Part shown: piece by piece, positions 12,999 to 38,383 of the stretch
Layout: each line of letters begins with the position of its first letter
Numbering within the stretch: position 1 is the first letter of the stretch
Assembly (NCBI GenBank): GCA_017883235.1
Contig: JADGNY010000051.1
Span: 1 to 42,170, forward strand
Reading direction: 5' to 3'
DNA: 42,170 nt
Source: Thermoanaerobaculia bacterium
GTDB lineage: Bacteria; Acidobacteriota; Thermoanaerobaculia; Gp7-AA8
The notes under the pieces: generated by a model
What the model was told of the DNA's origin: nothing
The model's database searches: none
What the model saw: the letters and a program-made list of their open reading frames with translations, nothing else
Program-made: the position numbers and the translations under genes

Positions 12999-13043
12999 AA
13001 CCGGCTGCCCTGTGGAGAAGGCGGATCACTAATGCCGTACTGA

Positions 13044-13474: not shown

Positions 13475-13737
13475 GTCCGAACGAGTGCGCCGCTCGAAGG
13501 CGATTGCGACCAACTATTTACGTCGTCCACGCAGTGCTGTGCGAAAAGCTCGAGTCCGAATGAGTGCGCCGCTCAAAGGCGATTGCGACTCGTGATCGGA
13601 CATCGGCGGCCTAGTTCTTCTCGCGTCCGAATGGAGTGCGCCGCTTGAAGGCGATTGCGACCCACGCTGAAAATTGCCTTTTGCGGTATCTCTCTCAACA
13701 TGTCCGAATGAGTGCGCCGCTCGAAGGCGATTCGCAG
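13475..13737 (+). CRISPR. CRISPR array 8: 4 repeats, 3 spacers
   Basis: Repeats at 13475, 13554 (CTCAAAGG variant), 13625 (37 nt, inserted G as in the repeat at 7326) and 13702 (terminal, GATTCGCAGG). Spacers are 35-43 nt. Confidence 0.95.
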
Positions 13738-13740
13738 GAA

Positions 13741-13820
13741 TGTCACGCGGATGCGCGGAGACGCGGAGGAGGCAATTCGAGATTCTCTTCTCCGCGTGCT
13801 CCGCGTCTCCGCGTGAAACC
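13741..13820. repeat. Module hairpin element
   Basis: TGTCACGCGGATGCGCGGAG and CTCCGCGTCTCCGCGTGAAA arms, between array 8 and cas2 copy 8. Confidence 0.65.
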
Positions 13821-13847
13821 GGCGCTCGTCGGAGAAGGCAGCCCACT

Positions 13848-14121
13848 AATTCAGTACCAGGTGTCTACGACATCGCGACGACCGTCGCCGGCAGCGGCTG
13901 TCGGACGTTCTGCTCGATTTCGGTACGCGTGTACAGGAAAGCGTCTTTCAATGCCGGATCGACCCGCAACTTGCCGAGGAGATGCTGGCGCGCGTCAAAC
14001 GAACGATCGAGGAGAACACGGACAAGGTCCACGTCCTGGCGTTGTGTGACGCCTGCGGAGTACGGGTGCCCACTACGGGATCGCTCATGAGGCGACGGAT
14101 CCGGAGCACCTGATCCTGTGA
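13848..14121 (+). pseudogene. cas2: cas2 copy 8, degraded
   Basis: The start codon is changed to ATT. Small deletions near 13860 and 13878 and another near 14070 (GGGTGCCCACTACGG) break the frame. The middle ([11 protein letters not shown] to DKVHVLALCDACGV) is still readable. Confidence 0.85.
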
Positions 14122-14287
14122 GAGCATTCCATCTTCGAGGAGGGGTCATCAATTGATGCAAGTGACTGGATCTGCGCGGCTTGCAGCACAGGCGTTCGAT
14201 GGAGTTGGAAGCGCTGACCCGAATTCTGCACGGTCTGCCAAATCAGCCTCGCAAGGGCCGAAGAATCAATGGATTAGAATGGGCAGG
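14122..14287 (+). promoter_or_regulatory. CRISPR leader 9
   Basis: GATGCAAGTGACTGG-class leader, ending AATGGATTAGAATGGGCAGG. Confidence 0.7.
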
Positions 14288-15005
14288 GTCCGAATGAGTG
14301 CGCCGGCCGAAGGCGATTGCGACGACCAAACGAGTGCCGCCGCGCCAGCCACTGCCGGCGAAGGTCCGAATGAGTGCGCCGCCCGAAGGCGATTGCGACC
14401 AAGTGCTCTTGTCGATCGCACCCTCGATGCCGAACCGCCAGTCCGAATGAGTGCGCCGCTCGAAGGCGATTGCGACAGTCTCACTTCATGGCACCCGACA
14501 GACAGATGCTGGAAGTCCGAATGAGTGCGCCGCTCGAAGGCGATTGCGACGTCCAAGTGAACGTGGTGCCTCCATCCCGCTAGCGCCGTCCGAATGAGTG
14601 CGCCGCTCGAAGGCGATTGCGACTCGCGATAGCGACCGAGATACCAGGCCTGGCTGATGTAGATGTCCGAATGAGTGCGCCGCTCGAAGGCGATTGCGAC
14701 TCCGAATCGGCGACATCGCCGACCATCCGGGTGAGAAGGTGTCCGAATGAGTACGCCGCTCGAAGGCGATTGCGACTGTTCCAGAAATATCCTAGAGCAA
14801 GATTTTGATTGGCCTGGCCCGAATGAGTGCGCCGCTCGAAGGCGATTGCGACGGGTTGAGCTCGAGCCACTTCGCGACCGTCAGCGGGTTACGTCCGAAT
14901 GAGTGCGCCGCTCGAAGGCGATTGCGACTTAGCGGGAGGAATTGCGGGAAGCGAACTGGCGGCCGCCGAGCCGTGCGAATGAGTGCGCTCGAAGGTGATT
15001 GCGAC
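14288..15005 (+). CRISPR. CRISPR array 9: 10 repeats, 9 spacers
   Basis: Repeats start at 14288, 14364, 14441, 14515, 14588, 14665, 14741, 14817, 14893 and 14973. The first two carry GGCCGAA and GCCCGAA in the middle; the eighth starts GCCCGAA; the last is shortened to 33 nt. Unlike the other blocks it is not closed by GATTCGCAGG plus a hairpin. It is followed 140 bp later by the effector operon. Confidence 0.95.
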
Positions 15006-15148
15006 TGCGCCGAGTTACCGACGGAGTCTCCGTGACGCGCCGCCGCCGGGTGTCCTGGTCCGAGGAGTGAATTCGGTCCATAATCCACCAGACGGTTCCG
15101 AGCCCGGTGAAATCTGCACGCCGCGGCCATCTAAACAGAGCGCCAGTC

Positions 15149-16786
15149 ATGCAAGACCGAGATGCCGGTACGATTCCGCTTTGCGCGGGGAACCCCTATG
15201 GCGAACAACCGGCGTCCTTCACCCGGTTCGCTCTTCCGTTCGTCTGCAGGCTCGAGCGCGACGAGCGGACCCAGAAGCCGTCTCAGTTCTACGATGACGT
15301 TCCGATCCCGAGGCTCGCCGCGAGGTCGCGGTATTTCACGCCCGAGACCGCTGACGTCTTGTTCGGGCGTGCCCGATGGCTGGAGCTGAAAGGGTCCTTC
15401 GCGTACCAGACGCTTCGAATGCCCATCGGAGGCGACGAGATCGAGATCGAGATCGCTCCGCCCCGGCTGGTTCTGTTCGAGGCAGGCGCGAGGCCCCGCG
15501 TCGAGTTGACCTCCACGGCATTCTTGCTGGTCGACGTCTACTTCCCGCAACCGGCGAAGAACGGCGAGGGGAAACCGTCCTCGCCACCGACTCTGGACGA
15601 TCTGCTGCTGATCAACGAGCTGTTCCGCTACTGGCGCCAGCCGTTCGACAAGCATCCGGCCAAGGAGTGTACGACCGCGCGGGGCGTCACCTGTTTCACC
15701 AAGGCGATGGCTAACGTTGCCGCCGCGGCCAGGGCAGCGCTCGATGGTGCCGGGCGGCGTGGAGAGCGTCTGGGCAAGGATGACGACTACTTCGATCGAT
15801 GGGATTGGTTGCTTTCCTATCCGATTAAGGACGAGGGCGGATACATGCGGATCGCCTCGACGGCTCGCGAGGCGGCCAGACGGTGGACACACCCGGAAGA
15901 CCCCTCGGCCGCTCTCAATGCGCTCAGCGATGACACGGGCTGGATCGCCTACACCGATGAGCGCGCATTCGTCTGGACGTGTGTCATCACGAAAAGCGGG
16001 TCGGAGGATCTGAAGGATGCCTTGGAAGGCGATCCGTCACACAGCGGAATGTGGGTGCGGCTGCTGAACGTCGACCGTCCCTCCAACGGTCAGGCAACCG
16101 CGTTCGAGAAACGGTGGTTGCGGGGACGGACCTACGAGAGATGGAAGCACTTCGGCACGCTCTACGGATTCAACATGCACTCCGGGGCGATGCTCGCCTC
16201 TCCCTGCGAGGAGCCGCCGCTATGGAGGCATTTCAGCGAGACGTACTTCGATCAGGTGCTGCTCCTGCTCTACCTCCGGGTCTCCACATTCCGCTTCAGC
16301 AGGGAGCTGGCCAGGATCTCGGCCGATCTGCCGTTTCACCAGAAACGGGATTTCCGCGAGTTCCGGAAGATCCGACGCGTCTTCGCCATGCTGACGAACC
16401 TCTACCGCTTCCCTCTTCTCTCGAGCCAACAGCAGGGGATTGAGATGTACACCTGCGCCAGGAAGTGGCTCGACGTCGACGATCTCTTCGAGGAAGTCCA
16501 GGCGGAGATCAGAGAAACCCATGAGATGTTCGAGTTGTCGACCGCTTCCGAGATGGGTGTTGCCACGGGAGTGCTGGCCTGCATCGCCATCATCATCGGC
16601 TTCTGCGGAGGAGTGATGGCTCTGCTCGCCGCCGATGACATCAAGCCCTATAGACCGCCGCGCGAGGCAGTGCTCCGTTTGCTGAACCATTTCCCTGGGT
16701 TGACGCCGGCCTGGTGGCTGATCGTGCTTGCCTTTGGAGGGAGTACCGCGCTCGCACTCGCGCTGTGGCGGCGTCTGCGGAAATGA
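15149..16786 (+). CDS. corA: CorA-like membrane protein, predicted type III CRISPR effector
   Basis: 545 residues from ATG 15149; an in-frame GTG at 15107 would give 559. A large soluble N-terminal part (about 470 residues) with the motif YFDQVLLLLYLRVSTFRFS is followed by an acidic helical stretch (DDLFEEVQAEIRETHEMFEL). Two C-terminal transmembrane segments follow (about residues 483-509 and 533-553 in 559 numbering), then a basic tail. This is the CorA layout, but the GMN motif of Mg2+ channels is not seen after the first segment. CorA-like proteins are known partners of type III systems, where they act as membrane effectors switched on by SAM-AMP made by Cas10. Its place first in an operon with cas10 (23-nt gap) and a DHH hydrolase supports that role here. 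The channel or pore activity is inferred. Confidence 0.75.
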   Translation: MQDRDAGTIPLCAGNPYGEQPASFTRFALPFVCRLERDERTQKPSQFYDDVPIPRLAARSRYFTPETADVLFGRARWLELKGSFAYQTLRMPIGGDEIEIEIAPPRLVLFEAGARPRVELTSTAFLLVDVYFPQPAKNGEGKPSSPPTLDDLLLINELFRYWRQPFDKHPAKECTTARGVTCFTKAMANVAAAARAALDGAGRRGERLGKDDDYFDRWDWLLSYPIKDEGGYMRIASTAREAARRWTHPEDPSAALNALSDDTGWIAYTDERAFVWTCVITKSGSEDLKDALEGDPSHSGMWVRLLNVDRPSNGQATAFEKRWLRGRTYERWKHFGTLYGFNMHSGAMLASPCEEPPLWRHFSETYFDQVLLLLYLRVSTFRFSRELARISADLPFHQKRDFREFRKIRRVFAMLTNLYRFPLLSSQQQGIEMYTCARKWLDVDDLFEEVQAEIRETHEMFELSTASEMGVATGVLACIAIIIGFCGGVMALLAADDIKPYRPPREAVLRLLNHFPGLTPAWWLIVLAFGGSTALALALWRRLRK

Positions 16787-16809
16787 CCAATGTCTGAAGG
16801 AGACCTCGC

Positions 16810-18381
16810 ATGGATTCGACTCTCTATGTCCGCATCGAGGGCGTGAACCTCGATAACTTCGTCTATGACGTTCATGACCTCAGCACGATCCGCGGAGGCA
16901 GCTTTCTGCTGCTCGATGCCGTGCGGCGGGTTCAGGAGCGGTTCGGACTGACGGAGATCAGTACGGGCGCATCGTCGGGGTTCTTCACTGCTCCCGCGGG
17001 CGACGGGGCGGCGGGCGCTGACGCGCTGCGAGGGGAGATCGAGCGATTCCTGAGCGACAGCGACGGCCAACCGCGGCCGAAGGACGAGAGCGATCAGTTG
17101 AAGCACGCCACCTTCGTCGTCGATGTCCGCGCCGAGGGGGATGGGGACGAAGGGTTCGAACGGGCGCGGGAGCCGCTGCTGGCGATGAACCGCTGGCGGC
17201 AGTTCCAGCAGCCGACGCTCGCTGTTCCGGCGAGTGGAAACCGGCAGGATGAGTGCGCGTTCGATCACGTACGTCCGGCCACCACGGACGTTTGGGTGAA
17301 GGAGAACGAACAGACGGTGAAGAAGCAGGCCAGTGCCTCGGTAGAGGCACGACGGACATTTGGCAGGGAGAAGAGGACGGCGTTCTATACCGAGGAGCTC
17401 GAGCGACTTGCGGAAGCGATCATTAAAGACGACCCATCCGCCGGGGAGGAGAGCAAGGCGGTGTACGGGCTCGCGCAAACGGTCGCGGCCATGGACTTCA
17501 CGAAGGATCTGGAGACGCTGGCTGACCACGGGACGCCGCGGTCGCTGGACGGGAAGATCGCCGTCGTCTACTTCGACGGCAACCGGTTCGGCAAGATTCA
17601 GAAGGGGTGCGACCGGCCCGATCTCGAGACCTTCGACCGGACCGTGAAGCGCTACCGCGGGCAGGCTCTGCGCAGGCTGCTCCAAAGCATTGTCGACGCT
17701 CCCGAAGGATGGCTGGCCGGAGAGGAGATCCGCCTGGAGACGCTCCTCTGGGGTGGCGACGAGTTGATCTGGGTCGTCCCGGCGTGGAAGGGATGGAGCG
17801 TGCTCCGGCTCTTCTACGAGACCTCGCGCGCCTGGCAGTTCACGCCGAGGCGCAAGCCGGCCGAGCCGCTGACGCACGCGGGGGGCGTGGTCTTCTGTCA
17901 CCGCGTGGCACCGATCCACCGGATGACCGAGCTGGCGAAAAAGCTGGCAGACTCCTGCAAGGACGGGTTCGACCAGGAGCCGAAGCCGGCCGATGACCAT
18001 GCCGGGCGAGACGTATTCGCATACCAGGTGCTCGAGTCGTTCGATCACATCGGAACGGACTTCAAGGCGTTCCGTGAAGGGCGTGTGCCTCGAGGCCGTA
18101 GCGTCCGTGAGCTGGGCGTACATGGCGCCGGTATGGACAAGGCGACGTCTGCATTTGACATCGTCAAACACACCTTCCCGAGATCGAAGCTCCACGCCAT
18201 CGTGGCGGTGATTCGCGATCACGAAGCCGAGAAGGCGACGCAGATGATCGAGAACACTGTCCGCGAGCTGCGGCCGGAAGGGAAGAGCGCCCTGAAGGAA
18301 CTTCTCTTCTTCTTCGATCCCTCTTCCGAGGGCCTCACCGGCTGGTATCACATCGCCGAGCTGTGGGACTACGCGGTCTGA
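16810..18381 (+). CDS. cas10: Cas10-like signalling subunit, HD-less, GGDE cyclase motif
   Basis: 523 residues, well below the usual 700-900 for Cas10. Start ATG 16810 follows a GAAGGAG ribosome site. Palm 1 begins at the N-terminus (LYVRIEGVNLDNFVYDVHDL, then RGGSFLLLDAV), so there is no HD nuclease domain. Palm 2 has YFDGNRFGKI (D256) and the loop WGGDELIWVV with GGDE at 315-318, the polymerase/cyclase signature with E for the last D. A short helical C-terminal part follows. It should therefore be able to make a nucleotide messenger but not cut DNA. Given the CorA and DHH neighbours, SAM-AMP is the predicted product. The gap of 12 nt to the next gene contains a GAGGAGG-type site. Confidence 0.85.
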   Translation: MDSTLYVRIEGVNLDNFVYDVHDLSTIRGGSFLLLDAVRRVQERFGLTEISTGASSGFFTAPAGDGAAGADALRGEIERFLSDSDGQPRPKDESDQLKHATFVVDVRAEGDGDEGFERAREPLLAMNRWRQFQQPTLAVPASGNRQDECAFDHVRPATTDVWVKENEQTVKKQASASVEARRTFGREKRTAFYTEELERLAEAIIKDDPSAGEESKAVYGLAQTVAAMDFTKDLETLADHGTPRSLDGKIAVVYFDGNRFGKIQKGCDRPDLETFDRTVKRYRGQALRRLLQSIVDAPEGWLAGEEIRLETLLWGGDELIWVVPAWKGWSVLRLFYETSRAWQFTPRRKPAEPLTHAGGVVFCHRVAPIHRMTELAKKLADSCKDGFDQEPKPADDHAGRDVFAYQVLESFDHIGTDFKAFREGRVPRGRSVRELGVHGAGMDKATSAFDIVKHTFPRSKLHAIVAVIRDHEAEKATQMIENTVRELRPEGKSALKELLFFFDPSSEGLTGWYHIAELWDYAV

Positions 18382-18393
18382 GGAGGAAGAGCC

Positions 18394-21300
18394 ATGAAGC
18401 AGATACGCCTGACCATCGACCTCACGCTGATTGCGCCGATCCTGACGCAGGCCAGCACCGCCGGCAAGATGGCGCTGGACGCGCCGTTCGCCAAGCTGCC
18501 CGACCTCCGCTGCTTCCTGCCGTTCTCCCTGATCAAGGGGCGGCTCCGGCAGTCGTGGGACGAGCTGGATCTCCCCGACACCGATCTCTGGTTCGGGAAT
18601 CGAAAAGGCGGATGGCAGGGCTCACGGGGGCGATTCCGCTTCAGCGACTTCGAGGAACAGCCGTCGGCTGCACGCGCCACCAAGGATCTGAGAAGGAAGA
18701 CCGGCGAGCGTCACCGCATTCGGATCGACGAAGAGCGCGGTGCCGCGGACGAAGGGGCGCTGCAATTCATCGAGAGTCCGTTTCCCGCGGGCGCGCGGGT
18801 GACGTTCAGGGGCAAGGTGACGTGGTTCGACGACGACGGCGCGGACACCTCGCGGCAGTCGCTCCTGCGGGCGTTCCGATGGACCGGGAACTTCGGCGCC
18901 GGGCGGACGATCGGATGCGGCCGCGTCGACCGGGTCGAAACGCCCGAGGAGGAGACTCCTACAGTCAGCGAAGCAAAGGCCGCGACGGTGTCTCCTTCCG
19001 GCGTCTATCAGATGACGCTCGAGATCAGCGACCCCTTCTGTCTGGCGCGCAAGCGGATCGACGAGAATCTCTTCTCCTCGGACGAGGAGATCCCCGGCTC
19101 GGTCGTCCGCGGCATCCTGGCGACGACGCTGAACCGGCTGCTCAAACGAGACTCCGCGGCAGCCATCGAGCCGGGTGACGGGCGAGGGACGGAATGGAGT
19201 GAGATCGCCGATCACCTCAACGCCATCCGCTTCTCGCACTCCTTTCCGGCGGATAAGGTTCGCGGCAAGCGGCCTGTTCATCCTCCGCTCTCGCTCGTAC
19301 GCGATAGCGGCTCCCGCGATAGCGGCTCTCGCGACCTTGTGGACGTGGCACTTTGCGAAGGGCCTGTGCTGATCAATGGTGCAGCACCTGTGTTCTCGAT
19401 CGATTGGAAAGGCGACGAGCCTGGGGAGCTACTGGCGCAGTTCGACTGGCCAGCTCTGAAACGAACGATCCGCACCCGCACGGCGATCGACCGCGATACG
19501 AAGCGTGCCGAAACGTCGCGGCTCTTCTCCTACGAGATGATCGATCCGGCCGACATCGTCTGGATCGGTACGGCTGACTTCTCGGCCATCGACGACGCGA
19601 CGGTCCGCGCGAAGGTCATCGCGCAGTTCGAGCGCATCTTCGCCATGCAGCCGGCGGCGCTTGGGAAAACGAAAGCGCGCGTGGTCATTCACCTGACGGC
19701 CGCCGACACGAGTACGCCGGGCGCAGACGATTCCTCGCAGTGGGTGGTCACTCTGCAAACGCCCGCCCTGCTCTGCGACCCGTCGCGGCTGGACGAGGCA
19801 AGCGGCCGCGATGCTCTCTTCGCCGCCTATGCCTCGGCGTGGGCCGATATTGCGAACGGTGAATTGCAACTGGTCCGCTTCTTCGCGACCCAGAGCCTGA
19901 CGGGCGGCTATCTCGCGCACCGGTTCAACAGACAGAAGTCGTACGCGCCGTTTCTGCTCACCGATCCCGGAAGTGTGTTCGTTCTATCCGGGAGCGCCGC
20001 GGGAGCGAACCTGCTGAGGGATTGGACACGCACCGGTCTGCCTCTCCCGAAATGGGCGCGAACAACTCACGGCGAGACGTGGCAGTCGAATCCGTACCTT
20101 CCCGCCGACGGCTTTGGAGAAATCGCGGTCGATCTGTCATGCCACACGAAACAGCAGTCTCGGGATTTCGTTGTGGTCGATCAGTGGCCCGCGATCGATC
20201 TAAGCAACATTCCTCCGCCACCCGATGCCCCGCCACACGACGACAAACCGCTCGAAACAACGGATCGAAAAAAGGAGGACACGGCCGTTGGGACGGTGAA
20301 GAGGGCCAGATTCTCGAGCCGCTGGCGCATCAGCGGCCGGATCGAGACGGAGAGCGAGTTTCACCTCGGCTCAGGCGAGATCACCACGCACCCGAAACTC
20401 TTCGTCAAAGAGAAAGGCTCGAAGACAGGCGAGCTCGTGGAAATCAGCGCGGTCGCTGTCGACAAGGAAACCCACCCGTACATCCCGGGCAGCAGTCTCA
20501 AAGGGGCGCTCCGCTCGTGGGCAAGACCACGCTTCGATCAGGAGCTGGTCGATGCCGTCTTCGGCGGTGACAGCGACGACCCGAAGTCTCAGGCTGGAAA
20601 GGCGGAATTCCACGATGCGATGTCGCTCCCGCCTTCGGGGTCGTTTGAAACGGTCCCCTACTGGAGACCCGAGCGCCGTACAGGAGTCGTGGCCTCGGCA
20701 GCCATCGACCGCTGGACGCGGACGGCGCAGGACAAGAAGCTGTTCCACTACGAGGTTGTGCCGCCGGGTGTGGCGTTTGATGTGTCGGTGACCGCTCACG
20801 ATCTCACCAACGAGGAAGCGTCTCTGCTCCTTCAAGCGATGCGGGCATTCGGCAACGCTTCCGATCCGATCGACGACCTGGAACGGGCCACCCTCGGCGC
20901 GGAGACGCGCGGTGGTCTCGGACGATTCTCATGGAGCAACGAGAGCGTCGACCGCCTCACCGACCCCACGGCATGGGCCGGCGGCTGGGACTCTTTACCA
21001 AAGCTCACTCAAGCCGAGCGGGATCAGATCGCTACCGCGGTGGCGAGAACCAACCGCGCAGCCGGCAGGATCGCAATCCCCATCGACATCTCCTTTGATG
21101 GGCCATTCCTGGTGAATGAGCCGAGCCGCACGAACCAGGAGAAGGGTGACGGCTTTCCGAACTACGCGCCACGCATCGACAAGAACAGTAAGGTCTCCCT
21201 GCCCGCATCGTCGTTGCGCGGAGCGCTGCGCGCCCAGGCGGAGCGCATCGCACGGAGCGTAGGAATTCAACCGCTCTGTCACAGCACGGACCCGGCGGAT

Positions 21301-24267
21301 GCCTGTCCGCCAGTGCATGGTGCCGGTGAAGAAAAGCGTCTATGCATGGCTTGCCGTCTCTTCGGTGCGACCGGTTGGGCGTCTCCGATCGCGATCTCGA
21401 CGCCGGAATCGACAGGCCCGTTACGCGGCTATGACCAGGAGCTCGTGGCCATCGACCGCTTCACCGGCGGTGTGGCCGGAAGCGCCAAGTTCAAGCTGAA
21501 GGGTTTCTGGAAACCGGCATTCCACCTGTCGCTGTCCGTCGACTCGTCGTTGATCAAAGATCGCCCGGCGGCTCTTGGATTGCTCGCCCTGACGCTCCGC
21601 GATCTGAAGGAAGGCGACATTACGCTCGGCTTTGGCGCATCCAAAGGTCTAGGCGCCTGTTCCGCGGACGTCCAATGGCCGGCGGAGGCGCAGACGGACG
21701 CATGGATCGCAGCGTTTCGCGCGGAGGGTGCGAAGTCGATTCCTGCGCTCGATTCGAAGGCGCCGCGCGAGCAAGGTCAGACGATTGTTCCCGCCGCCAG
21801 AGCGGACGTCTTTCACAACCCCTACGCCTTTGTCCCTGTCGTGCAGCCCACGGAGACGATTGATGCTCTCGCGCTGCACACTGAAGCCGCAGGTTCGGTG
21901 AGACACGACAAGTACGTCCCTGGTACGTACTCCGGCAGGATCATCTGCCGGCTCGAGACCAAGGGTCCGGTCATCGTTGGCGCTGCGCACGTGGAGCATG
22001 CGGAGCAGAACCTGCCGGCGGACATCGAACCCTTCCTCGATCCCGACACGATGCGGCCCGCGATTCCGTCCACATCACTGCGGGGTCTCGTTTCGAGTCT
22101 GGCCGAGGCGGCCAGCAGTTCAGCGCTACGCGTGCTCAACGAACGGACGCTTTCCTATCGTTGTTCTGAGCACGAGAACCTGCCGGCGATCGGAATGGTT
22201 ACTGGCAACGGTAAGAGGCTCCGACCTCTCGCTCTGCCTCTGCTTCGCAACGGGATGATCTCCGAGCCCTACCGCGTGATGTTTGGCGATTTCAAAGTCC
22301 CGCCGGTTCGCGTATACCTCAACGGCTATCGTCCGACCGTCGCGGGGCCAACCGAGGTCGCGATCCTGAGGCCGGGGTCGTTCCTGGCAGCGCGCAATCC
22401 CAACTCCTCCTCGGCCGATAACCCGGCCGAGGTTTGGTACATGCGTCTGGGCAAACGGACACGCACGGGCTGGAATGTGACCGTCGAGCACGCGCACATG
22501 GCAGGGCCGATCCTTCTTGCGCAGGACCCCAATCCGGATCCGGACTACCGGGATCCGATCGACGCCAAGACATACGCCGCATTGCCGGCAGCAGAGAAGG
22601 AGCTGTATACGCGCGGGGTCATTCGCGTTCTCGGCGCTGTCGGAAGGGCATCGCTCTCGAGGCGGAAGCACGAGCTGTTCCTTCCTCTCCCGCCGCCAGG
22701 CATACCGGACTTTGATGCCAGCGCTGCTGTGGCCGAGTTCGAGAGACTTGCGGCCGAACGAACGGAAGAAGACGAGACGCTGCCCTACGAGCCGAAGGGA
22801 TCTCACAGGAACGGCGGGGCAAAACCGTCCGACAGGAACATCAAGTTGCGCGACGGGGACATCGTTTACTTCGCGCCAACCGAAGATGGCGCCAAAGTAG
22901 AGCGGGTGGCGATTTCATCGATCTGGAGAAAGTCGGTGCCGGGAACGATCCACGAGTTCTTCCGCGACATCTCTCCCGAGCTGCTTCCTTTCAATGGCGC
23001 ACGGCGCGAGGTCACCGTTGCCGAGAGCCTCTTCGGCTACGTTGACGATGGCGCTTCTCCGGACACAACGCAGCAGCGCGTTACCTCTCTGGCAGGACGA
23101 GTCCGTTTTTCGATGGCCAGGCTTGGAAGCAACCAGGACCCGGGCGGCGACCTTCTGCCTCAATCGACGATTCAGCCGTTGCTATCGCCAAAGCCACCAT
23201 CGCCAACCTTCTACTTCCGGCCAAAACAGAAGACTGGATCCATTCTGAAGCGGCAGCTCAACCGCAAGGATCACACGCCGCAGGGAAGGAAGTTCTACCT
23301 GCATGGGAAAGAGAGCTGGCGCCTCGAAGGAGCGGGCGATCGTTTCGCGAGCCGTGCCACACCGATTGCTCGCGGGCGGGTATTCTGGTTTCACGTCGAT
23401 GTAGAGAACCTCACCCCTCGGGAACTTGGCCTGCTGTTCTACTCCTTGCGGCCCTCGCCGGCGTTCAATCACAAGATCGGCATGGGAAAGGCGATCGGTC
23501 TGGGCAGCATTCAGATCGATCCGGTGGCCGTGTTTATGATCGATCGCGACGCACGCTACTCCGGAGCGGCAAGCAAGAGCCGATACAACGCCGCGTGGGC
23601 CGATCAGAAGCCCGGCGTCTCCGAGTGGCTAGAGGCCTATCCGCGCGAAGCGGCCGAATCCGATCAGTTGCCGGCCATGGCGCACCTTTTCGAGACGCTC
23701 CGGGATCAGTATCGTGACTCGATGAACCCGGACATCAGCAAGGCCCTGGAGCTGATCGGCGATCCCACACAGGTCGTGGCACCCGTCCATACGCCTCAGA
23801 TCGAAGACGCAGCGATCGGGCACGAGAGTTTCAAATGGTTCATGCGCAACGAGAAGAGCGCCAGCGTGCAATGGCTCGACCCGCTCGGACGCGAGTCGAC
23901 CGGGTTGCCGGTCTTTTCGAGAAAAGAGATGCGTGTACAGCAGCTCCGCACCGTTCCGGCAGCGCACCTGGTAACCGGACCGCAGCATGCGGTTGGCTCA
24001 AGCAGGCCGGAGGTCTCGCGGTCAAAAGAGCCCCAACGAGAGGTGTGGCCGAAGGCGATGCTGGTCAATGTTCCAAACCTCAACAGCATCAAGGCGGTCA
24101 TCAGACTCGACAGCGGAGCCACCCGGGATGCGTGGGCGGGAAGCACCTTCAAGGACTTTGAGAACCTCAAACTGCGCATCAAGCGAAAGGGTGAGCTGCC
24201 TGCGTCGGTTACAGTGCAAATGACAGCGAGCGGGAAATACGAAATCGTCGAACTGGAAATCCCCTGA
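18394..24267 (+). CDS. Giant fused RAMP effector: Cas7-like, Csx10-like, Cas7, Cas7-Zn, TIGR03986-like
   Basis: 1957 residues in one uninterrupted frame with no sign of assembly frameshift. At least five RAMP modules are visible by their Gly-rich loops. (1) About 1-200, Cas7-like, loop FSLIKGRLR at 44-52, Asp D29. (2) About 205-610, Csx10/Cas5-like, IPGSVVRG at 233-240, LTGGY at 502-506, PGSVFVL at 525-531. A Pro/charged linker follows at 605-640. (3) About 640-870, Csm3-like, D690, IPGSSLKG at 697-704. (4) About 890-1110, Cas7 with D929, LPASSLRG at 936-943 and a Zn site C962, C971, C984, C987. (5) About 1138-1710, resembling the TIGR03986 family, with HNPYAFVPV at 1141-1149, IPSTSLRG at 1224-1231 and HKIGMGKAIGLG at 1693-1704. 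A tail of about 250 residues is unassigned. It would form the crRNA-binding backbone and cut target RNA at the Asp sites. It overlaps the next start by 1 nt. Confidence 0.85.
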   Translation: MKQIRLTIDLTLIAPILTQASTAGKMALDAPFAKLPDLRCFLPFSLIKGRLRQSWDELDLPDTDLWFGNRKGGWQGSRGRFRFSDFEEQPSAARATKDLRRKTGERHRIRIDEERGAADEGALQFIESPFPAGARVTFRGKVTWFDDDGADTSRQSLLRAFRWTGNFGAGRTIGCGRVDRVETPEEETPTVSEAKAATVSPSGVYQMTLEISDPFCLARKRIDENLFSSDEEIPGSVVRGILATTLNRLLKRDSAAAIEPGDGRGTEWSEIADHLNAIRFSHSFPADKVRGKRPVHPPLSLVRDSGSRDSGSRDLVDVALCEGPVLINGAAPVFSIDWKGDEPGELLAQFDWPALKRTIRTRTAIDRDTKRAETSRLFSYEMIDPADIVWIGTADFSAIDDATVRAKVIAQFERIFAMQPAALGKTKARVVIHLTAADTSTPGADDSSQWVVTLQTPALLCDPSRLDEASGRDALFAAYASAWADIANGELQLVRFFATQSLTGGYLAHRFNRQKSYAPFLLTDPGSVFVLSGSAAGANLLRDWTRTGLPLPKWARTTHGETWQSNPYLPADGFGEIAVDLSCHTKQQSRDFVVVDQWPAIDLSNIPPPPDAPPHDDKPLETTDRKKEDTAVGTVKRARFSSRWRISGRIETESEFHLGSGEITTHPKLFVKEKGSKTGELVEISAVAVDKETHPYIPGSSLKGALRSWARPRFDQELVDAVFGGDSDDPKSQAGKAEFHDAMSLPPSGSFETVPYWRPERRTGVVASAAIDRWTRTAQDKKLFHYEVVPPGVAFDVSVTAHDLTNEEASLLLQAMRAFGNASDPIDDLERATLGAETRGGLGRFSWSNESVDRLTDPTAWAGGWDSLPKLTQAERDQIATAVARTNRAAGRIAIPIDISFDGPFLVNEPSRTNQEKGDGFPNYAPRIDKNSKVSLPASSLRGALRAQAERIARSVGIQPLCHSTDPADACPPVHGAGEEKRLCMACRLFGATGWASPIAISTPESTGPLRGYDQELVAIDRFTGGVAGSAKFKLKGFWKPAFHLSLSVDSSLIKDRPAALGLLALTLRDLKEGDITLGFGASKGLGACSADVQWPAEAQTDAWIAAFRAEGAKSIPALDSKAPREQGQTIVPAARADVFHNPYAFVPVVQPTETIDALALHTEAAGSVRHDKYVPGTYSGRIICRLETKGPVIVGAAHVEHAEQNLPADIEPFLDPDTMRPAIPSTSLRGLVSSLAEAASSSALRVLNERTLSYRCSEHENLPAIGMVTGNGKRLRPLALPLLRNGMISEPYRVMFGDFKVPPVRVYLNGYRPTVAGPTEVAILRPGSFLAARNPNSSSADNPAEVWYMRLGKRTRTGWNVTVEHAHMAGPILLAQDPNPDPDYRDPIDAKTYAALPAAEKELYTRGVIRVLGAVGRASLSRRKHELFLPLPPPGIPDFDASAAVAEFERLAAERTEEDETLPYEPKGSHRNGGAKPSDRNIKLRDGDIVYFAPTEDGAKVERVAISSIWRKSVPGTIHEFFRDISPELLPFNGARREVTVAESLFGYVDDGASPDTTQQRVTSLAGRVRFSMARLGSNQDPGGDLLPQSTIQPLLSPKPPSPTFYFRPKQKTGSILKRQLNRKDHTPQGRKFYLHGKESWRLEGAGDRFASRATPIARGRVFWFHVDVENLTPRELGLLFYSLRPSPAFNHKIGMGKAIGLGSIQIDPVAVFMIDRDARYSGAASKSRYNAAWADQKPGVSEWLEAYPREAAESDQLPAMAHLFETLRDQYRDSMNPDISKALELIGDPTQVVAPVHTPQIEDAAIGHESFKWFMRNEKSASVQWLDPLGRESTGLPVFSRKEMRVQQLRTVPAAHLVTGPQHAVGSSRPEVSRSKEPQREVWPKAMLVNVPNLNSIKAVIRLDSGATRDAWAGSTFKDFENLKLRIKRKGELPASVTVQMTASGKYEIVELEIP

Positions 24268-25058
24268 TGCCTGATCCTTCCAAGCTCGCCTTCTTCCTCG
24301 GAGGGCACGATCTCGAAATGTTGACCATCCGGGATCTCGTGAGGGAGGTTGCGCCTGATCGTCTTTTCGACAGGAACCTTCCATGGGGCGCGAAAGCGTC
24401 GGTGTATCGCGCGGAGATCGAAGACGCTGTTGCATCCGGGCTTCAGCCGGTGCTGATCGAGCTGGAGGATGACATCGGCGTACGCGGCGCACATGTAGTG
24501 GTGGATCATCACGGAAGCCGCGCCGGCGCAACCGCGCCGACATCGCTCCATCAGATCTTCGATCTCTTGCAGCTTCCTCGCTCACGCTGGACCCGACGGC
24601 TGGAACTGGTCGCGGCAAACGATCGTGGTCACATCCGCGAGCTGCGGCGGATCGGCGCAACGCAGGAGGAGATCCAACGGATTCGCGCCGACGACCGGGC
24701 CGCGCAAGGAGTCACAGAGATAGATGAACGTGCGGGTGAAAAGGCGATTCAACAGGCGCAAACGTTCGCGGATGGGCTCTTGACGGTCGTCGAGTTACCC
24801 CACGCGCGTTCTGCGGTCGTTGCCGACCGTCTCGAGATGCGTCCCGACCCGCCGGAAAGCCTTCTGGTGATCTCGCCAATCGAAGTGAACTACTTCGGTC
24901 CAGGACCGGTCATCGACGCACTTCACGATCGCTATCCCGGCGGATGGACCGGAGGATCGCTGCCTGAACGCGGATTCTGGGGTCACAAACCCATCCCTGC
25001 GGACATCATCGATTTCACCGAGTCCGCGATCGAGTTGGTTCGGAGATCGGTCCGATAA
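24267..25058 (+). CDS. nrn: DHH-family phosphodiesterase, NrN-like
   Basis: 263 residues, start ATG overlapping the stop of the giant RAMP gene (TGATG), so translationally coupled. Motifs of the DHH superfamily are GGHDLEML near the N-terminus (D15), VVVDHHGSRAG with D80-H81-H82, and AANDRGHIREL with D119. A C-terminal substrate-binding domain ends in GGWTGGSLPERGFWGHKP. DHH hydrolases called NrN accompany CorA in type III-B loci and degrade SAM-AMP. Here the enzyme is last in the operon and would switch the signal off. A generic nanoRNase or RecJ-like role is the alternative, but the operon context favours messenger turnover. Confidence 0.8.
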   Translation: MPDPSKLAFFLGGHDLEMLTIRDLVREVAPDRLFDRNLPWGAKASVYRAEIEDAVASGLQPVLIELEDDIGVRGAHVVVDHHGSRAGATAPTSLHQIFDLLQLPRSRWTRRLELVAANDRGHIRELRRIGATQEEIQRIRADDRAAQGVTEIDERAGEKAIQQAQTFADGLLTVVELPHARSAVVADRLEMRPDPPESLLVISPIEVNYFGPGPVIDALHDRYPGGWTGGSLPERGFWGHKPIPADIIDFTESAIELVRRSVR

Positions 25059-28488: not shown

Positions 28489-31400
28489 ATGCTTCCGCTC
28501 AAGCGCCACGAGCGTCGCGCTGATACCGCGACACTTCAAAACTCCGGTTCAGAGCGTCTGTTCGCTGCTTACAATATAGGATTTGTGGAAATACCACGGT
28601 TTGCCGCGGGAAACTTCAACGAACGCATTGCCGGCAGTGACCCGGGCAGGGCCTTCCAGGTGTTTGCGGGAGAGGTGCTGGCCAAGCGTTACCCGAGCAT
28701 TCATTTATATGGTGCAGGCGGACGCGATGGCGGCATCGACCTCGACACGCAAGGCCAGGTTGTGGTCGAGTGCAAGCACTGCGATGACGGCGACGATTTG
28801 CAGAAAGCGTGGAGTGAGGTAGCAGCACGCCTCCTGCGGCATCTCGCTGATCCTGACCATCCCGGACAATCACAATACTCGCCTTGGTACGCGACAGGCG
28901 CGGACGCGATCACGGGCTATCGGCTTGTAACCGATGGCGTGTTTGCCAACAGGAGCCGCATCCAAGCGTTCCAAGGCGAGATTCGCGCATTCTTTGAGGA
29001 ACTGGGAAAACAGCGGCACCTCGCCCACCTTGGGGCCATCGACATCGAGGTGCTCGACTGGAACGACTTCGAGTCAGAGCTGAAGAGCCATCCGGAACTC
29101 TTGTTCCGCTGGTTTCCGTCGACGCGCCCAAATGGGTTGATGCCGCTCGATGAGGTTCAGGAAGGGCGGCTATTCCGATCTTTTCTCTCGGGCACTAAGC
29201 TGCCTTATTACAGTCGCAGTGCTCACGGCCTCGCGGTGGGGGATCTCGCCGATACGCCCCGGGAAGACGATCTCCTGGCCCTGCTCGACCGGACGACGGG
29301 ACTCATCATCACTGGGAAGGGAGGTGTCGGGAAAACCCGACTCACGATCGAGCTTGGACATCGTGCCAAGCAGAACGGATGGGTAGTCCTGCGCGCCTCC
29401 GCGATGTTCCGTGACGAGGCCATAGATGATCTCCTATCGCGTTCCGTCTCGCCAACGGACGTTCTCCTACTCATCGACTACGTCGAGATGATCGAATCGT
29501 TTGCGGACCGGATCGAGCACATCGAGATGCTCAATGCCACGCTCCCACATCGCATCCGTTATGTCGCAAATTGCCGAACGAGCTACTACCGAAACGTCCA
29601 GGCTATTGGTGGTCACACACGAGTCGACGTCAGCCCCACAGCCGGCCACCCCTCGACATGGCTCGAGGGCTATCGTCGCGCAATCGTCGAGAAGGTATTG
29701 TCGACTTCGGGGATCGACTTCACGCCGGCCCACTTGAAAGTCTGCCGGGACGTGCCGGTTTTTGCGGTCTTCATGGCGTTTTTGCAGAATCAGAAGCGGA
29801 CGGATGATCTTCACGAACTGGTGGCGGACGGCGAGTTTGGCCCCTGGATCGCGAGGCGGGTCCAGCAGAGTTTCGGGCGTCCGATCGGAAGTGCTCTGGC
29901 GATGCTGGTCGCGGCATTTCCGATGGAGGAGATGCGCCGGAGTGCGCTGTCTGGATCGATGCGCGACTTGTTTGAGCGCCTCGCCTCCGATGGATGGATC
30001 GAGAAGCTCATCGACGGACCGGATGCGGGACTATGGGTGACAGCGCACGACGCCCTCGCCGACCGAGTGATCCTGAACCACATCGAGAACCTTGGTGCCG
30101 CCGCCGATCTGTTTGTCGAGGAACTATTCGATTTTGCTGAAACGAACGACGGGATTGCCTCTGTCCTGATCGCGCTGCAGCGACTCGGGGATTCGGTGGT
30201 GCTCCAGGCGTTCAATTGGGTGAAGCTCTTGGCCGAGCGGGTACGTCGACGCGCTCCCCGATGGTTAGCCTCGCGGAAGCTGATTATGCAGAGCAACCTC
30301 CTGCCGGCCGCCGAACGAATCGAACTTCTCGAGCGCACGGCCGATTGTTGGGAGGATCTCCTTGGAGACACCGCCTTTCAGAACGCTCTTGGCTGGATCT
30401 GTAAACAAGTAGCGGACGCAGGCTCACCGGTAGCCGAAGTAGATTCGCTGCGGCCATGGGTGCTCAGAGCCGCAGATCAGGTCAGGACCTCGAATTACAT
30501 CCTCTCCCGCGGGTTGATTCTTTTTCCGGAGCTCCGAGCGGCTACCGAACAGTGGCTGAAAACGCGCCCGATCGAGTTTCGCAGTGATTACCTCATCGTG
30601 GTCTGGCTAAATCAGGGATACGCCGCTGCGGCAATCGCCCACTATGTCGCTGCATGGATCGGGAGATTCTCCGCAGACCCACAGGCGCAGTTTGTCTATA
30701 GTGCGTGGCTCAACGCAGGTGGCGACCGAGCGTTGGTCGAAGAGCCGATCAGGCGTTGGCTTACGCTACATGCCGAGCTTGAGGCGGCCCAATTTGTCTA
30801 TCGAGGCTGGCTCGACGCAGGTGGCGACCGAGCGATGGTCGAAGAGCCGATCAGACGTTGGCTCACGCTGCATGCCGAGATCGAAACGGCGCGGTTTGTC
30901 TATGGTGCGTGGCTCAACGCGGGTGGCGACCGAGCGTTGGTTGAAGAACCGATTAAGCGTTGGCTCGGGCTGCATGCGGAGATCGAAGCGGCGCGGTTTG
31001 TCTATAGTGCGTGGCTCAACGCAGGTGGCGACCGAGCGTTGGTCGAAGAGCCGATTAGGCGTTGGCTCACGCTGCATGCCGAGATCGAAACGGCGCGGTT
31101 TGTCTATGGTGCGTGGCTCAACGCGGGTGGCGACCGAGCGTTGGTCGAAGAGCCGATTAGGCGTTGGCTCACGCTACATGCCAAGGCCGAAGCTGCAGGG
31201 TTTGTCTATCGAGGATGGCTCGACGCAGGCGGCGATCGAGCGCTCGTCGAAGAGCCGATCAGACGTTGGCTCACGATGCACGCCGAGATCGAAGCGGCGC
31301 GATTTGTCCATTGCGCGTGGCTCGACGCAAGCGGCGATCGAGCGCTCGTCGAAGAGCCGATCAGACGTTGGCTCACGCTCCATGCCAAGATCGAAGCGGC

Positions 31401-32337
31401 AGGCTTTGTCTATCGTGGGTGGCTCGGCGCAGGCGGCGATCGAGCGCTCGTCGAAGAGCCGATCAGACGTTGGCTCACGCTCCATGCCGAGATCGAAGCG
31501 GCGCAATTTGTCTATTACGCGTGGCTCGACGCAGGCGGCGATCGAGCGCTCGTCGAAGAGCCGATCAGACGTTGGCTCACGTTCCATGCCGAGATCGAAG
31601 AGGCAGGGTTTGTCTATCGAGGCTGGCTCGACGCGCAAGGCGCTCTCAAAGCCGTGGAGTCGCAAGTGATCGGGTGGCTCGGCCTGCATTCCCGGTCTGA
31701 GGGCTCCGATTTCCTGGTCGTCGCCTACCTGAGGCGTGGCGGATCACTCAAACCAGTGCGCGAGGCAGCCCTCACCGCAATGGCTCGGCTTCGGGAAAGC
31801 GCATCTGGTTCATTCATTTCGAAGGCACTTGCGAAGCAGCACGACTTGCCGGACGAGGCTGTTCTCAACATCCTGCGGTGGTGCAGGCACTTCGCGCACG
31901 ATGACGACGCGCTGTGGCGATTGAGCCAGTTGGAGGAAAAGATCGCACGCGCTCAGGTGGCTGCCGAGACATGTGAGGTCGCGGAGTTTGTGCTTGATCC
32001 ATGGTTGAGCGAGACCTCGGCGCCGTCTCCAGAGGTAGCGAACAACGTAACGCGGATTCTTGCAGGAATGACCCTCATCACCGAGCCATCACTCCACGAA
32101 CGCGCCGGGGTGATGCTGGCCAGGTGGCTGCGGCACCCGCGCGGGTTCAGTACGTCGAACTGGTGTCCTGTGGCTTGCGTGGCGCCGCTCGTTTTGGAAG
32201 TGCGGGCATTGATCGAACGTGGGGTCGTCGATATGGCCAGCGATGCCGAAGCTATCGACCTGTTTGCGGAATGGAAGCATCGGCGCGACGCAGAAGTCCG
32301 CCGAGCAAGAATGATTGGAGTGCGCAATCGCGACTGA
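28489..32337 (+). CDS. Avs-like STAND NTPase with Mrr nuclease domain and 34-residue repeats
   Basis: 1282 residues. The N-terminal domain has GGRDGGIDL (D84) and VVVECKH (E94, K96), the PD-(D/E)xK pattern of Mrr-type restriction nucleases. A STAND/AAA-like NTPase follows, with Walker A GKGGVGKT at 276-283 and Walker B VLLLID at 325-330. After a helical region come ten 34-residue repeats at 733-1072, then more diverged helical repeats. Nuclease plus STAND plus repeat sensor is the design of Avs anti-phage proteins, in which the repeats recognise a phage protein and the nuclease degrades DNA. The ATG at 28489 is the first start; GTG 28585 (VEIPRFAAG) may be the real one, since the preceding 32 residues look unstructured. 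It is a single gene next to a tRNA, as is common for defence genes. The specific target is unknown. Confidence 0.8.
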   Translation: MLPLKRHERRADTATLQNSGSERLFAAYNIGFVEIPRFAAGNFNERIAGSDPGRAFQVFAGEVLAKRYPSIHLYGAGGRDGGIDLDTQGQVVVECKHCDDGDDLQKAWSEVAARLLRHLADPDHPGQSQYSPWYATGADAITGYRLVTDGVFANRSRIQAFQGEIRAFFEELGKQRHLAHLGAIDIEVLDWNDFESELKSHPELLFRWFPSTRPNGLMPLDEVQEGRLFRSFLSGTKLPYYSRSAHGLAVGDLADTPREDDLLALLDRTTGLIITGKGGVGKTRLTIELGHRAKQNGWVVLRASAMFRDEAIDDLLSRSVSPTDVLLLIDYVEMIESFADRIEHIEMLNATLPHRIRYVANCRTSYYRNVQAIGGHTRVDVSPTAGHPSTWLEGYRRAIVEKVLSTSGIDFTPAHLKVCRDVPVFAVFMAFLQNQKRTDDLHELVADGEFGPWIARRVQQSFGRPIGSALAMLVAAFPMEEMRRSALSGSMRDLFERLASDGWIEKLIDGPDAGLWVTAHDALADRVILNHIENLGAAADLFVEELFDFAETNDGIASVLIALQRLGDSVVLQAFNWVKLLAERVRRRAPRWLASRKLIMQSNLLPAAERIELLERTADCWEDLLGDTAFQNALGWICKQVADAGSPVAEVDSLRPWVLRAADQVRTSNYILSRGLILFPELRAATEQWLKTRPIEFRSDYLIVVWLNQGYAAAAIAHYVAAWIGRFSADPQAQFVYSAWLNAGGDRALVEEPIRRWLTLHAELEAAQFVYRGWLDAGGDRAMVEEPIRRWLTLHAEIETARFVYGAWLNAGGDRALVEEPIKRWLGLHAEIEAARFVYSAWLNAGGDRALVEEPIRRWLTLHAEIETARFVYGAWLNAGGDRALVEEPIRRWLTLHAKAEAAGFVYRGWLDAGGDRALVEEPIRRWLTMHAEIEAARFVHCAWLDASGDRALVEEPIRRWLTLHAKIEAAGFVYRGWLGAGGDRALVEEPIRRWLTLHAEIEAAQFVYYAWLDAGGDRALVEEPIRRWLTFHAEIEEAGFVYRGWLDAQGALKAVESQVIGWLGLHSRSEGSDFLVVAYLRRGGSLKPVREAALTAMARLRESASGSFISKALAKQHDLPDEAVLNILRWCRHFAHDDDALWRLSQLEEKIARAQVAAETCEVAEFVLDPWLSETSAPSPEVANNVTRILAGMTLITEPSLHERAGVMLARWLRHPRGFSTSNWCPVACVAPLVLEVRALIERGVVDMASDAEAIDLFAEWKHRRDAEVRRARMIGVRNRD
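30685..31704 (+). repeat. Ten in-frame 102-bp repeats inside the STAND gene
   Basis: Exactly 102 bp per unit, starting at 30685. Nine units are nearly identical and the tenth is diverged. The encoded motif contains FVYxAWLxAGGDRALVEEPI and RRWLTLHAEIE. Variable positions are concentrated in the first few residues (R/Q/G at 2, S/R/G/C/Y at 6) and at 31-34. They probably form an alpha-solenoid sensor surface. Confidence 0.9.
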
Positions 32338-32397: not shown

Positions 32398-32473
32398 TGG
32401 TGGAGCCGAACGGGATCGAACCGTCGACCTCCTGAATGCCATTCAGGCGCTCTCCCAATTGAGCTACGGCCCC
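32398..32473 (-). tRNA. tRNA-Ala (GGC)
   Basis: 76 nt on the minus strand including an encoded CCA end. The acceptor stem GGGGCCG pairs with CGGCTCC (one G-T pair). The D-arm region is GCTCAATTGGGAGAGC; the anticodon stem is CCTGA/TCAGG with loop ATGGCAT, giving anticodon GGC. The T-arm contains GGTTCGATCC. It ends 60 nt from the STAND gene, a typical site for integrated defence DNA, although no flanking direct repeat of the tRNA 3' end was found by eye. Confidence 0.93.
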
Positions 32474-36594: not shown

Positions 36595-36879
36595 CTGCCG
36601 CTCTGCGGCGTTGTCTGCGGCTTCGCCGCGTTGTCTGCGCTTCGCGCGTTGTCTGCGGCGTGGCCGCGTGGTCGATGTTTGCCGCTCTGCAGCGTTGTCT
36701 GCGTTTCGCGCGTTGCTTGCGGCGGGGCCGCGTGGTGATGTTTGCTCAATCATGCTGACAGATCATCCGGCGAAGCCCGCAGACTACGCCGTCAGGCAAC
36801 ACACAACGCGCGAAGCGCAAACAACGCGGCGACAGCCGCAGACAACGCCGCGAAGCGGCAGACAACGCGCGAAGCGCAG
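36595..36879. repeat. Repeat-filled gap between phoB and phoR
   Basis: Many short palindromic units of the type TTGTCTGCGCTTCGCGCG on the left half and the reverse-complement type GCGAAGCGCAGACAACGC on the right half (from about 36770), so the whole gap can fold back on itself. The same family fills 38229-38383. Confidence 0.75.
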
Positions 36880-38228: not shown

Positions 38229-38383
38229 AACTGCGCCTCCGGCGCGTTGTCTGCCGCTTCGCGGCGTTGTCTGCGCTTTGCGCGTTTTCTGCGGCTATCG
38301 CCGCGTTATTTCGTTTCGATCTTCTCGATCATTGAACATATTGACCACGCGGCCGCGCCGCAGACAACGCGTGAAGCGCATCA
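38229..38383. repeat. Repeat-filled gap between pstB and phoU
   Basis: Short palindromes of the TTGTCTGCGCTTTGCGCG type at the left and an inverted unit GCAGACAACGCGTGAAGCGC at the right. Same family as 36595-36879. Confidence 0.7.

What the first reader, a model, noticed from the sequence alone, without database searches (positions are those of the whole stretch)
30685..31704. Ten 102-bp repeats in an Avs-like sensor, nearly identical at DNA level
Exact 34-residue periodicity with variation focused on a few positions suggests recent expansion and diversification of a phage-sensing surface, with copy number changeable by recombination.
Basis: partly seen in the sequence, partly recalled or inferred. 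Interest (0 to 1): 0.6.

Follow-up and report, generated by a model that had tools for sequence, protein, structure and literature searches.

The report
Immune sensor with diversified tandem repeats
A bacterial gene that looks like an NLR-type antiviral switch carries nine very similar 34-residue repeats whose differences fall mainly on one face of one helix, a design known from fungal self/non-self sensors, although what it senses is not yet known.

Summary
The 102-bp array is real, exact in period and in frame, inside a protein of 1,250 or 1,282 residues. Nine copies are 78-93% identical in DNA; the tenth is a degenerate end copy (54-62%). The protein has a conserved PD-(D/E)XK-type motif, a STAND NTPase whose model is closest to Avs5, Avs4 and NLRs, and a TPR-like solenoid predicted with good confidence. 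No relative was found in 396 genomes of its phylum, but a DNA-pattern scan found a sparse family in several phyla; 17 relatives were read. Arrays hold 2-19 copies. In 14 of 14 arrays with enough copies, positions 2 and 6 of helix A vary between copies, whereas exposed helix-B positions, equally free to differ between proteins, are homogenised within each. This is the pattern published for fungal NLR repeats. Verdict: a new bacterial variant of a known kind.

The parts
28585..32337 (+). Whole gene, probable GTG start at 28585 (1,250 residues); the ORF also has an ATG at 28489 (1,282 residues). Residue numbers in this report count from the ATG.
   Evidence: start inferred from alignment with relatives and an AGGA a few bases upstream of the GTG.
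28585..29200 (+). N-terminal PD-(D/E)XK-type domain (motif D84, E94, K96)
   Evidence: D84 in 12 of 13 and E94, K96 in 12 of 12 aligned members that have letters there; Pfam Mrr_cat only below its cut-off and only in 3 of 7 members, not in the window's. Borders approximate.
29240..30110 (+). STAND NTPase: Walker A (29314), Walker B (29464), conserved R363, H520-D521 (MHD-like)
   Evidence: K282, D330, E333, R363, H520, D521 in 15 of 15 aligned members; Foldseek and VIA neighbours Avs5, Avs4, NLRs. Borders approximate.
30583..30684 (+). Divergent helical hairpin just before the array
   Evidence: (row -1) and helices 14-23 and 28-42 of the model.
30685..31602 (+). Nine in-frame 102-bp repeats; helix A = positions 1-10, helix B = 15-29
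31603..31704 (+). Tenth, degenerate end copy
   Evidence: 54-62% DNA identity to the nine.
31705..32337 (+). C-terminal helical cap, lower model confidence towards the end
   Evidence: a similar sequence follows the arrays of several relatives.

Best explanation
The gene encodes an Avs-like (NLR-like) immune switch. The TPR-like solenoid made by the repeats is the sensor. When its groove binds an intracellular ligand, most likely a protein of an infecting phage or other mobile element, the STAND NTPase is released, exchanges nucleotide and oligomerises, and the N-terminal PD-(D/E)XK domain cuts DNA and stops the infection. Concerted evolution (unequal recombination or gene conversion) keeps the scaffold residues of the copies alike, while residues on the exposed face of helix A (positions 2, 6, 10, with 12, 33 and 34) stay different from copy to copy, so that gaining, losing or shuffling copies changes the binding surface. 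Shown here: the array, the domain order, the conserved motifs, the predicted fold, the different copy numbers across relatives, and the homogenised scaffold against the diverse helix-A face. Inferred: nuclease activity, activation by a ligand, phage origin of the ligand, that the variable face lines the groove, and recombination as the cause.
For: Exact in-frame array. NTPase half closest to Avs5 (Foldseek 2.2e-9; VIA Z 15.7 over 323 residues, 5.4 A) and Avs4 (6.7e-9), then NLRP and SAMD9 structures. Catalytic and NTPase motifs conserved in 12-15 aligned members. Solenoid model with mean pLDDT 86.3. Copy number 2-19 in 18 proteins, different in each of the six closest pairs. Positions 2 and 6 variable in 14 of 14 arrays; window profile against mean of the other 13, rho 0.74. 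Positions 2 and 6 more variable within arrays than exposed helix-B positions in 14 of 14 arrays (p 1.2e-4), although between proteins both classes differ alike (0.80 and 0.85); nearest neighbour in the same protein for 112 of 119 repeats by all positions, 110 by exposed helix B, 27 by positions 2, 6, 10. Same pattern published for fungal NLR TPR, ANK and WD40 repeats (PMC4986451 section 17; PMC12222747 passages).
Against: pN/pS at positions 2 and 6 is 0.58-1.45 and above 1 in only 5 of 14 arrays; in one array (Salinarimonas) it is lower than in the rest of the repeat; helix-B position 15 pools at 1.20. With position 10 included the contrast fails in one array (Rhodospirillales OFTM364). The variability profile is not significantly shared by the four-copy Neorhizobium array. 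By sequence profile, ArsA-type ATPases outrank Avs4 in the PDB. PADLOC Avs models do not match beyond the P-loop. Neighbourhoods of relatives give only a few defence candidates. No activity was tested.
Confidence: 0.6

Rival explanations
1. Same kind of STAND switch, but the helix-A variation is neutral: positions 2, 6 and 10 are simply unconstrained, the solenoid is a spacer or autoinhibitory scaffold, and homogenisation plus drift gives the pattern; sensing happens elsewhere, for example in the C-terminal cap.
For: Pooled pN/pS is 1.03 at position 2 and 0.72 at position 6, the value expected without constraint; overall the repeats are under purifying selection (0.24-0.83).
Against: Exposed helix-B positions also change freely between proteins yet are homogenised within them; the most diversified positions (2, 10, 34, 6, 33, 12 among the 22 positions with between-protein difference above 0.5) lie within one residue of those reported as hypervariable and ligand-contacting in TPRs (PMC1261162 passages; compared after the result was seen).
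Confidence: 0.25
2. A STAND protein with diversified repeats that is not anti-phage: the solenoid recognises a cell's own or a kin-strain protein (self/non-self recognition as in fungal heterokaryon incompatibility), or a metabolic inducer as in transcription-regulating STANDs.
For: The closest evolutionary parallel, fungal HNWD receptors, senses an allelic self protein (PMC12222747 passages); no anti-phage evidence exists for this family.
Against: Nuclease-type N-terminus, nearest structures Avs5 and Avs4, a type III CRISPR locus upstream, very sparse distribution (2 of 298, 1 of 295, 1 of 195 genomes, query genomes included).
Confidence: 0.13
3. Artefact: the repeat number or the similarity of copies was created by assembly.
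For: The genome is a 246-contig assembly and tandem repeats are hard for short reads.
Against: Longest exact repeat 86 nt; copies differ at many sites; the same 34-residue arrays occur in other, independently assembled genomes, isolates among them.
Confidence: 0.02

Closest known systems
Antiviral STAND (Avs / AVAST) proteins, especially Avs5 and Avs4
   Same: N-terminal effector, central STAND NTPase, C-terminal helical-repeat sensor; best structural neighbours of the NTPase half. Avs1-4 use nucleases and sense terminase, portal or another phage protein (PMC12931631 passages).
   Different: No PADLOC Avs model matches beyond 51 residues at the P-loop; a near-identical repeat array is not mentioned in the passages seen of the Avs5 paper, whose repeats are described as poorly conserved.
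Fungal NLRs with internally conserved TPR, ANK or WD40 repeats (Podospora HNWD and others)
   Same: Very similar tandem repeats, variable copy number, homogenised scaffold with a few diverse positions; for fungal TPRs these map to the concave side (PMC4986451 section 17; PMC12222747 passages).
   Different: Bacterial, with a nuclease-type N-terminus; positive selection and within-species polymorphism not shown here; mean identity of the nine copies (83%) is just under the 85% used there.
Prokaryotic proteins with internally conserved repeats (WD40 proteins; a TPR-like protein class)
   Same: High internal repeat identity is already reported for bacterial WD40 proteins (statement in PMC12222747) and for a natural TPR-like protein (Marold 2015, seen only as a reference-list entry).
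   Different: Neither was read here; whether they include nuclease-STAND proteins is unknown to me.
DGR-diversified STAND sensors
   Same: Bacterial STAND proteins with a deliberately varied sensor (PMC10907252 passages).
   Different: There a C-type lectin domain is mutated by a retroelement; here tandem repeats vary, and the repeat profile found no second copy of them in the genome.
Streptomyces SAV_2336-domain P-loop protein (L008)
   Same: Related hairpin motif (WL..H....A.YV) in a P-loop protein; 29% identity over 168 residues.
   Different: Unit of about 38 residues by eye, different N-terminus.

Membership tests
Avs (antiviral STAND) | Central STAND NTPase | tested here: met
   Motifs in 15 of 15 aligned members; Avs5, Avs4 and NLRs are the best structural neighbours. 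Pfam STAND models are below cut-off for the window's protein and one relative passes nSTAND_NTPase5 (35.4 against 34).
Avs (antiviral STAND) | N-terminal effector domain such as an Mrr-like nuclease | tested here: inconclusive
   D84/E94/K96 conserved; Mrr_cat only sub-threshold in 3 of 7 members, none in the window's. VIA rows cover mainly residues 210-567, so the N-terminal fold was barely tested.
Avs (antiviral STAND) | C-terminal helical-repeat sensor domain | tested here: met
   AF2 solenoid, mean pLDDT 86.3.
Avs (antiviral STAND) | Sequence membership in a catalogued Avs family | tested here: not met
   PADLOC: Avs4 E 0.049 over residues 269-319 only; no Avs model for 8 relatives at 0.01.
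Avs (antiviral STAND) | Activation by a phage protein and protection against phage | not testable with these tools
   Needs experiments.
TPR repeat | 34-residue antiparallel helix pairs in tandem | tested here: met
   helices at repeat positions 1-10 and 15-29, period 34.
TPR repeat | Match to a TPR sequence model above its cut-off | tested here: inconclusive
   None for the window's repeats; TPR_14 just above cut-off in one relative (23.7 against 23.5).
NLR with internally conserved repeats (fungal type) | Repeats over 85% identical over at least 100 residues | tested here: inconclusive
   Nine copies average 83%, range 76-94%; definition from PMC4986451.
NLR with internally conserved repeats (fungal type) | Concerted evolution of the repeats | tested here: met
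   112 of 119 repeats are nearest to a repeat of the same protein.
NLR with internally conserved repeats (fungal type) | Repeat-number polymorphism within a species | not tested
   One genome per species is held. Between species the number differs: closest pair, 65% identical in the N-terminal/STAND part, 9 against 6.
NLR with internally conserved repeats (fungal type) | Positive selection at groove positions | tested here: inconclusive
   pN/pS at positions 2 and 6: 0.58-1.45, above 1 in 5 of 14 arrays, higher than the rest of the repeat in 13 of 14.

The most novel reading that the evidence does not exclude
The solenoid is a modular reader: each 34-residue repeat adds one recognition unit through residues 2, 6 and 10 of helix A (as designed armadillo, PUF or PPR repeats read one unit of a peptide or RNA each), so the array spells out its ligand, and bacteria re-program an NLR-like nuclease by gaining, losing and shuffling 102-bp cassettes.
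Probability: 0.1. Interest if true: 0.85.

Novelty: new variant of a known kind. Interest (0 to 1): 0.52.

Why it matters
How innate sensors encoded in the germline keep up with changing parasites is an open question. Fungal NLRs appear to do it with internally conserved repeats that recombine and vary at a few groove positions. Here the same signature appears in a bacterial, nuclease-bearing, Avs-like family found in several phyla, where it could be tested quickly with phage panels and repeat swaps. If the variable residues set specificity, the family would be a natural modular binding scaffold coupled to a DNA-cutting switch.

Tried and rejected
Close relatives by the whole protein: only the gene itself in 100 relatives (E 1e-10) and in 396 phylum genomes (E 1e-6; 'own genome' included in both counts); nothing in plasmids (1e-5), phages (0.01), viral contigs or genome contigs. 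Repeat profile A1: only the window's own array in 60 relatives; in 396 phylum genomes six further genomes at E 0.003-0.007, not followed. Tblastn of the repeat region: the Paenibacillus larvae plasmid hits are an acidic repeat linker, not relatives. L031 and L046 (STAND parts) against plasmids: none.

Diversity-generating retroelement: considered because DGRs diversify STAND sensors elsewhere (PMC10907252 passages). The repeat profile found no second copy of the repeats in the genome; reverse transcriptases were not searched for.

Solved structures by sequence: no useful match for the repeats. Foldseek with the solenoid gave helical solenoids only, none at E 0.001 or better (result). VIA's best, importin-alpha, Z 18.2 over 344 residues at 4.0 A, may mean only a common arrangement.

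The tRNA-Ala gene just downstream as an island boundary: no direct repeat of it longer than 13 nt in the window, so not supported.

In print? The listings (open-licence papers only) showed no bacterial nuclease-STAND family with this pattern; that is no proof of absence.

Rows dropped: of 38 pattern loci, 24 were handed; they lie in 23 genomes, 18 of which hold the family; 17 were fetched, G470/L054 was not. Of the 18 proteins including the window's, 14 had at least four core repeats and entered (L072, L073, L074, L076 left out), with at least five, entered. Copies there: weaker coupling of helix-A with helix-B segments than between two halves of the helix-B segment in 10 of 13 arrays, equal to two decimals in 1, reversed in 2.

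Full report
OBSERVATION. The array is real. Tandem Repeats Finder places a 102-bp period at 30684-31634 with 9.3 copies and no indels. In the protein the 34-residue lag dominates: 240 identities in 326 comparisons, against 43 for the next best lag of those tested. Nine copies (30685-31602) are 78-93% identical in DNA and 76-94% in protein; the tenth is degenerate, 54-62% in DNA. 'Nearly identical' is therefore generous, and synonymous divergence among the nine is appreciable (pS 0.31; 0.26 in copies 1-5, 0.14 in copies 6-9).

GENE. The array lies in a 1,282-residue ORF (28489-32337, +); alignment with relatives and an AGGA upstream favour a GTG start at 28585. From the N-terminus there is a PD-(D/E)XK-type motif (D84 in 12 of 13, E94 and K96 in 12 of 12 aligned members with letters there), a STAND NTPase (Walker A and B, R363, H520-D521 in 15 of 15), then the solenoid and a C-terminal cap. 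For this protein Pfam gives only sub-threshold matches to AAA_16, nSTAND_NTPase5 and nSTAND3; PADLOC gives PDC-S73 and Avs4 over the P-loop only, at E 0.026 and 0.049. One relative, L046, passes the nSTAND_NTPase5 cut-off (35.4 against 34). Mrr_cat is sub-threshold in 3 of 7 members. That the motif means a nuclease of the Mrr kind is therefore inference.

RELATIVES. The whole protein matched nothing but itself at the thresholds used in 100 genomes and in 396 genomes of the phylum, and nothing in plasmids, phages or viral contigs. A degenerate DNA pattern for W-L-x-x-H ... A-x-F/Y-V-x-x-x-W-L, taken from the repeat itself, matched 38 stretches in the collection of 84,980 species genomes, many with several hits 102 bp apart. 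Twenty-four of these were searched with a profile of the N-terminal and STAND part (A4), which lacks the repeats; 18 of 23 genomes had it, one match each. Seventeen were fetched. By their titles they come from Alphaproteobacteria, Magnetococcales, cyanobacteria, Anaerolineales and an Acidobacteria bin. Because the pattern came from the repeat, the set leans towards regular arrays. The family is sparse even near its hosts: 2 of 298 genomes of one family, 1 of 295 of another, 1 of 195 of an order, the query genomes included.

COPY NUMBER. With one score cut-off the 18 proteins hold 2, 4, 4, 6, 6, 6, 7, 9, 9, 9, 9, 9, 9, 10 (the window's, degenerate copy counted), 10, 11, 17 and 19 copies. Three arrays run off the end of their contig (L067, L073, L079), so their counts are minima, and L076 lacks its N-terminus. 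Spacing is 34 residues throughout in 16 of 18. The closest pair, 65% identical in the N-terminal/STAND part, has 9 and 6; the next two pairs 11 and 6, and 9 and 11. So the number is not fixed between species. Variation within a species could not be tested.

WHICH POSITIONS VARY. In the 14 arrays with at least four core copies, positions 2 and 6 vary (pairwise difference above 0.3) in all 14. The window's variability profile agrees with the mean of the other 13 (rho 0.74, p 4e-7); for single arrays rho runs from 0.24 (Neorhizobium, four copies, not significant) to 0.74. The informative contrast is within against between proteins. Exposed helix-B positions (15, 16, 19, 20, 21, 23, 24, 27, 28) differ between proteins at 0.85 on average, positions 2 and 6 at 0.80; yet within arrays positions 2 and 6 are the more variable in 14 of 14 (p 1.2e-4; in two arrays by 0.02 or less). 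With position 10 added, 13 of 14 (p 3.7e-4). Judged by all positions, 112 of 119 repeats have their nearest neighbour in the same protein; by exposed helix B, 110; by positions 2, 6 and 10, only 27, against 9 at random (ties shared). Scaffold residues thus evolve in concert inside each gene, while the helix-A face keeps a palette shared across the family.

SELECTION. By a simple pN/pS count the repeats are under purifying selection (0.24-0.83). Positions 2 and 6 together give 0.58-1.45: above 1 in 5 of 14 arrays, higher than the rest of the repeat in 13 of 14, lower in Salinarimonas, 0.67 in the window. Pooled over arrays position 2 gives 1.03, position 6 0.72, position 10 1.37 and position 15, on helix B, 1.20. 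This fits diversifying selection and fits loss of constraint equally well. Recombination between copies is suggested, not proved, by weaker coupling between helix-A and helix-B segments than between two halves of the helix-B segment (mean rho 0.11 against 0.40 in 13 arrays, p 0.027; 10 lower, 1 equal, 2 reversed; window 0.09 against 0.20).

STRUCTURE. AF2 on residues 686-1282 gives a regular solenoid (mean pLDDT 86.3): helix A is repeat positions 1-10, helix B 15-29. Among Foldseek's candidates VIA ranks importin-alpha (Z 18.2), trypanosomal RESC subunits (15.6), designed armadillo repeats (15.3) and PUF (13.9), that is, peptide- and RNA-binding solenoids; for repeats a Z near 13 may mean only a common arrangement, and Foldseek itself had nothing at 0.001 or better. 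On residues 1-700 (mean pLDDT 83.2) the top matches are Avs5 (2.2e-9) and Avs4 (6.7e-9), followed by NLRP and SAMD9 structures, and EfAvs5 by VIA (Z 15.7, 323 residues, 5.4 A, model residues 213-643). By sequence profile, Avs4 is found in the PDB at E 0.004 only, behind ArsA- and MinD-type ATPases. That comparison was made after seeing the result.

CONTEXT. Upstream in the window lie CorA-like, Cas10, a 1,957-residue fused RAMP protein and a DHH hydrolase. Among 83 ORFs near 13 relatives, PADLOC at 1e-10 lists a few candidates (mad2, mad3, mad6, mad8, PD-T4-6, AriA, HerA and two type III accessory models), and Pfam three phage integrases among the 25 of 97 families shown. Of ten of these proteins scanned singly, one, in the Neorhizobium locus, matches mad8 and HerA. 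This is weak support for a defence context.

COMPARISON WITH WHAT IS KNOWN. Fungal NLRs with internally conserved TPR, ANK and WD40 repeats show repeat-number polymorphism and a few positions under positive selection, mapped for TPRs to the concave side (PMC4986451 section 17; PMC12222747 passages). High internal repeat identity is also reported for bacterial WD40 proteins (statement in PMC12222747). The present family works like the fungal receptors and is built like Avs proteins; by sequence it belongs to no Avs family in PADLOC. I file it as a new bacterial variant of a known kind. The boldest reading that the data do not exclude is a modular code, one repeat for one unit of the ligand; nothing here tests it.

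Noticed in passing
window 5402-14928: 54 CRISPR repeats (36 nt, up to 3 mismatches) fall into several short runs separated by eight homologous blocks of about 320-560 bp (81-93% identical). The blocks carry a Cas2-like ORF (two of two tested match PF09827) and end in a shared leader-like stretch before the next run: apparently serial duplication of a cas2-leader-array module. Partial copies lie on other contigs of the genome.
   Followed up: partly
window 15107-25058: Unusual type III CRISPR effector locus: CorA-like protein, a 523-residue Cas10, a single 1,957-residue protein with Cas5/Csm4-like and several Cas7-like (RAMP) segments, and a DHH hydrolase of the CorA-associated kind.
   Followed up: no
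window 3358-4305: Cas6-like ORF (PF10040, E 1.5e-9) upstream of the arrays.
   Followed up: no
window 2823-3278 and 4637-4921: Two tandem arrays with a 21-nt unit, about 20 and 14 copies, near the Cas6-like gene.
   Followed up: no
window 32398-32473: tRNA-Ala (GGC) on the minus strand directly downstream of the STAND gene; no direct repeat of it longer than 13 nt in the window.
   Followed up: partly
window 36608-36879 and 38242-38307: Arrays of a unit of about 20 nt (GCGTTGTCTGCGGCTTCGCC-like), in one orientation at 36608 and the reverse at 36770.
   Followed up: no
L007 5632-7635: A Paenibacillus larvae plasmid AAA ATPase has a separate, near-identical acidic repeat linker (about 34 residues a unit by eye), unrelated to this family.
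   Followed up: no
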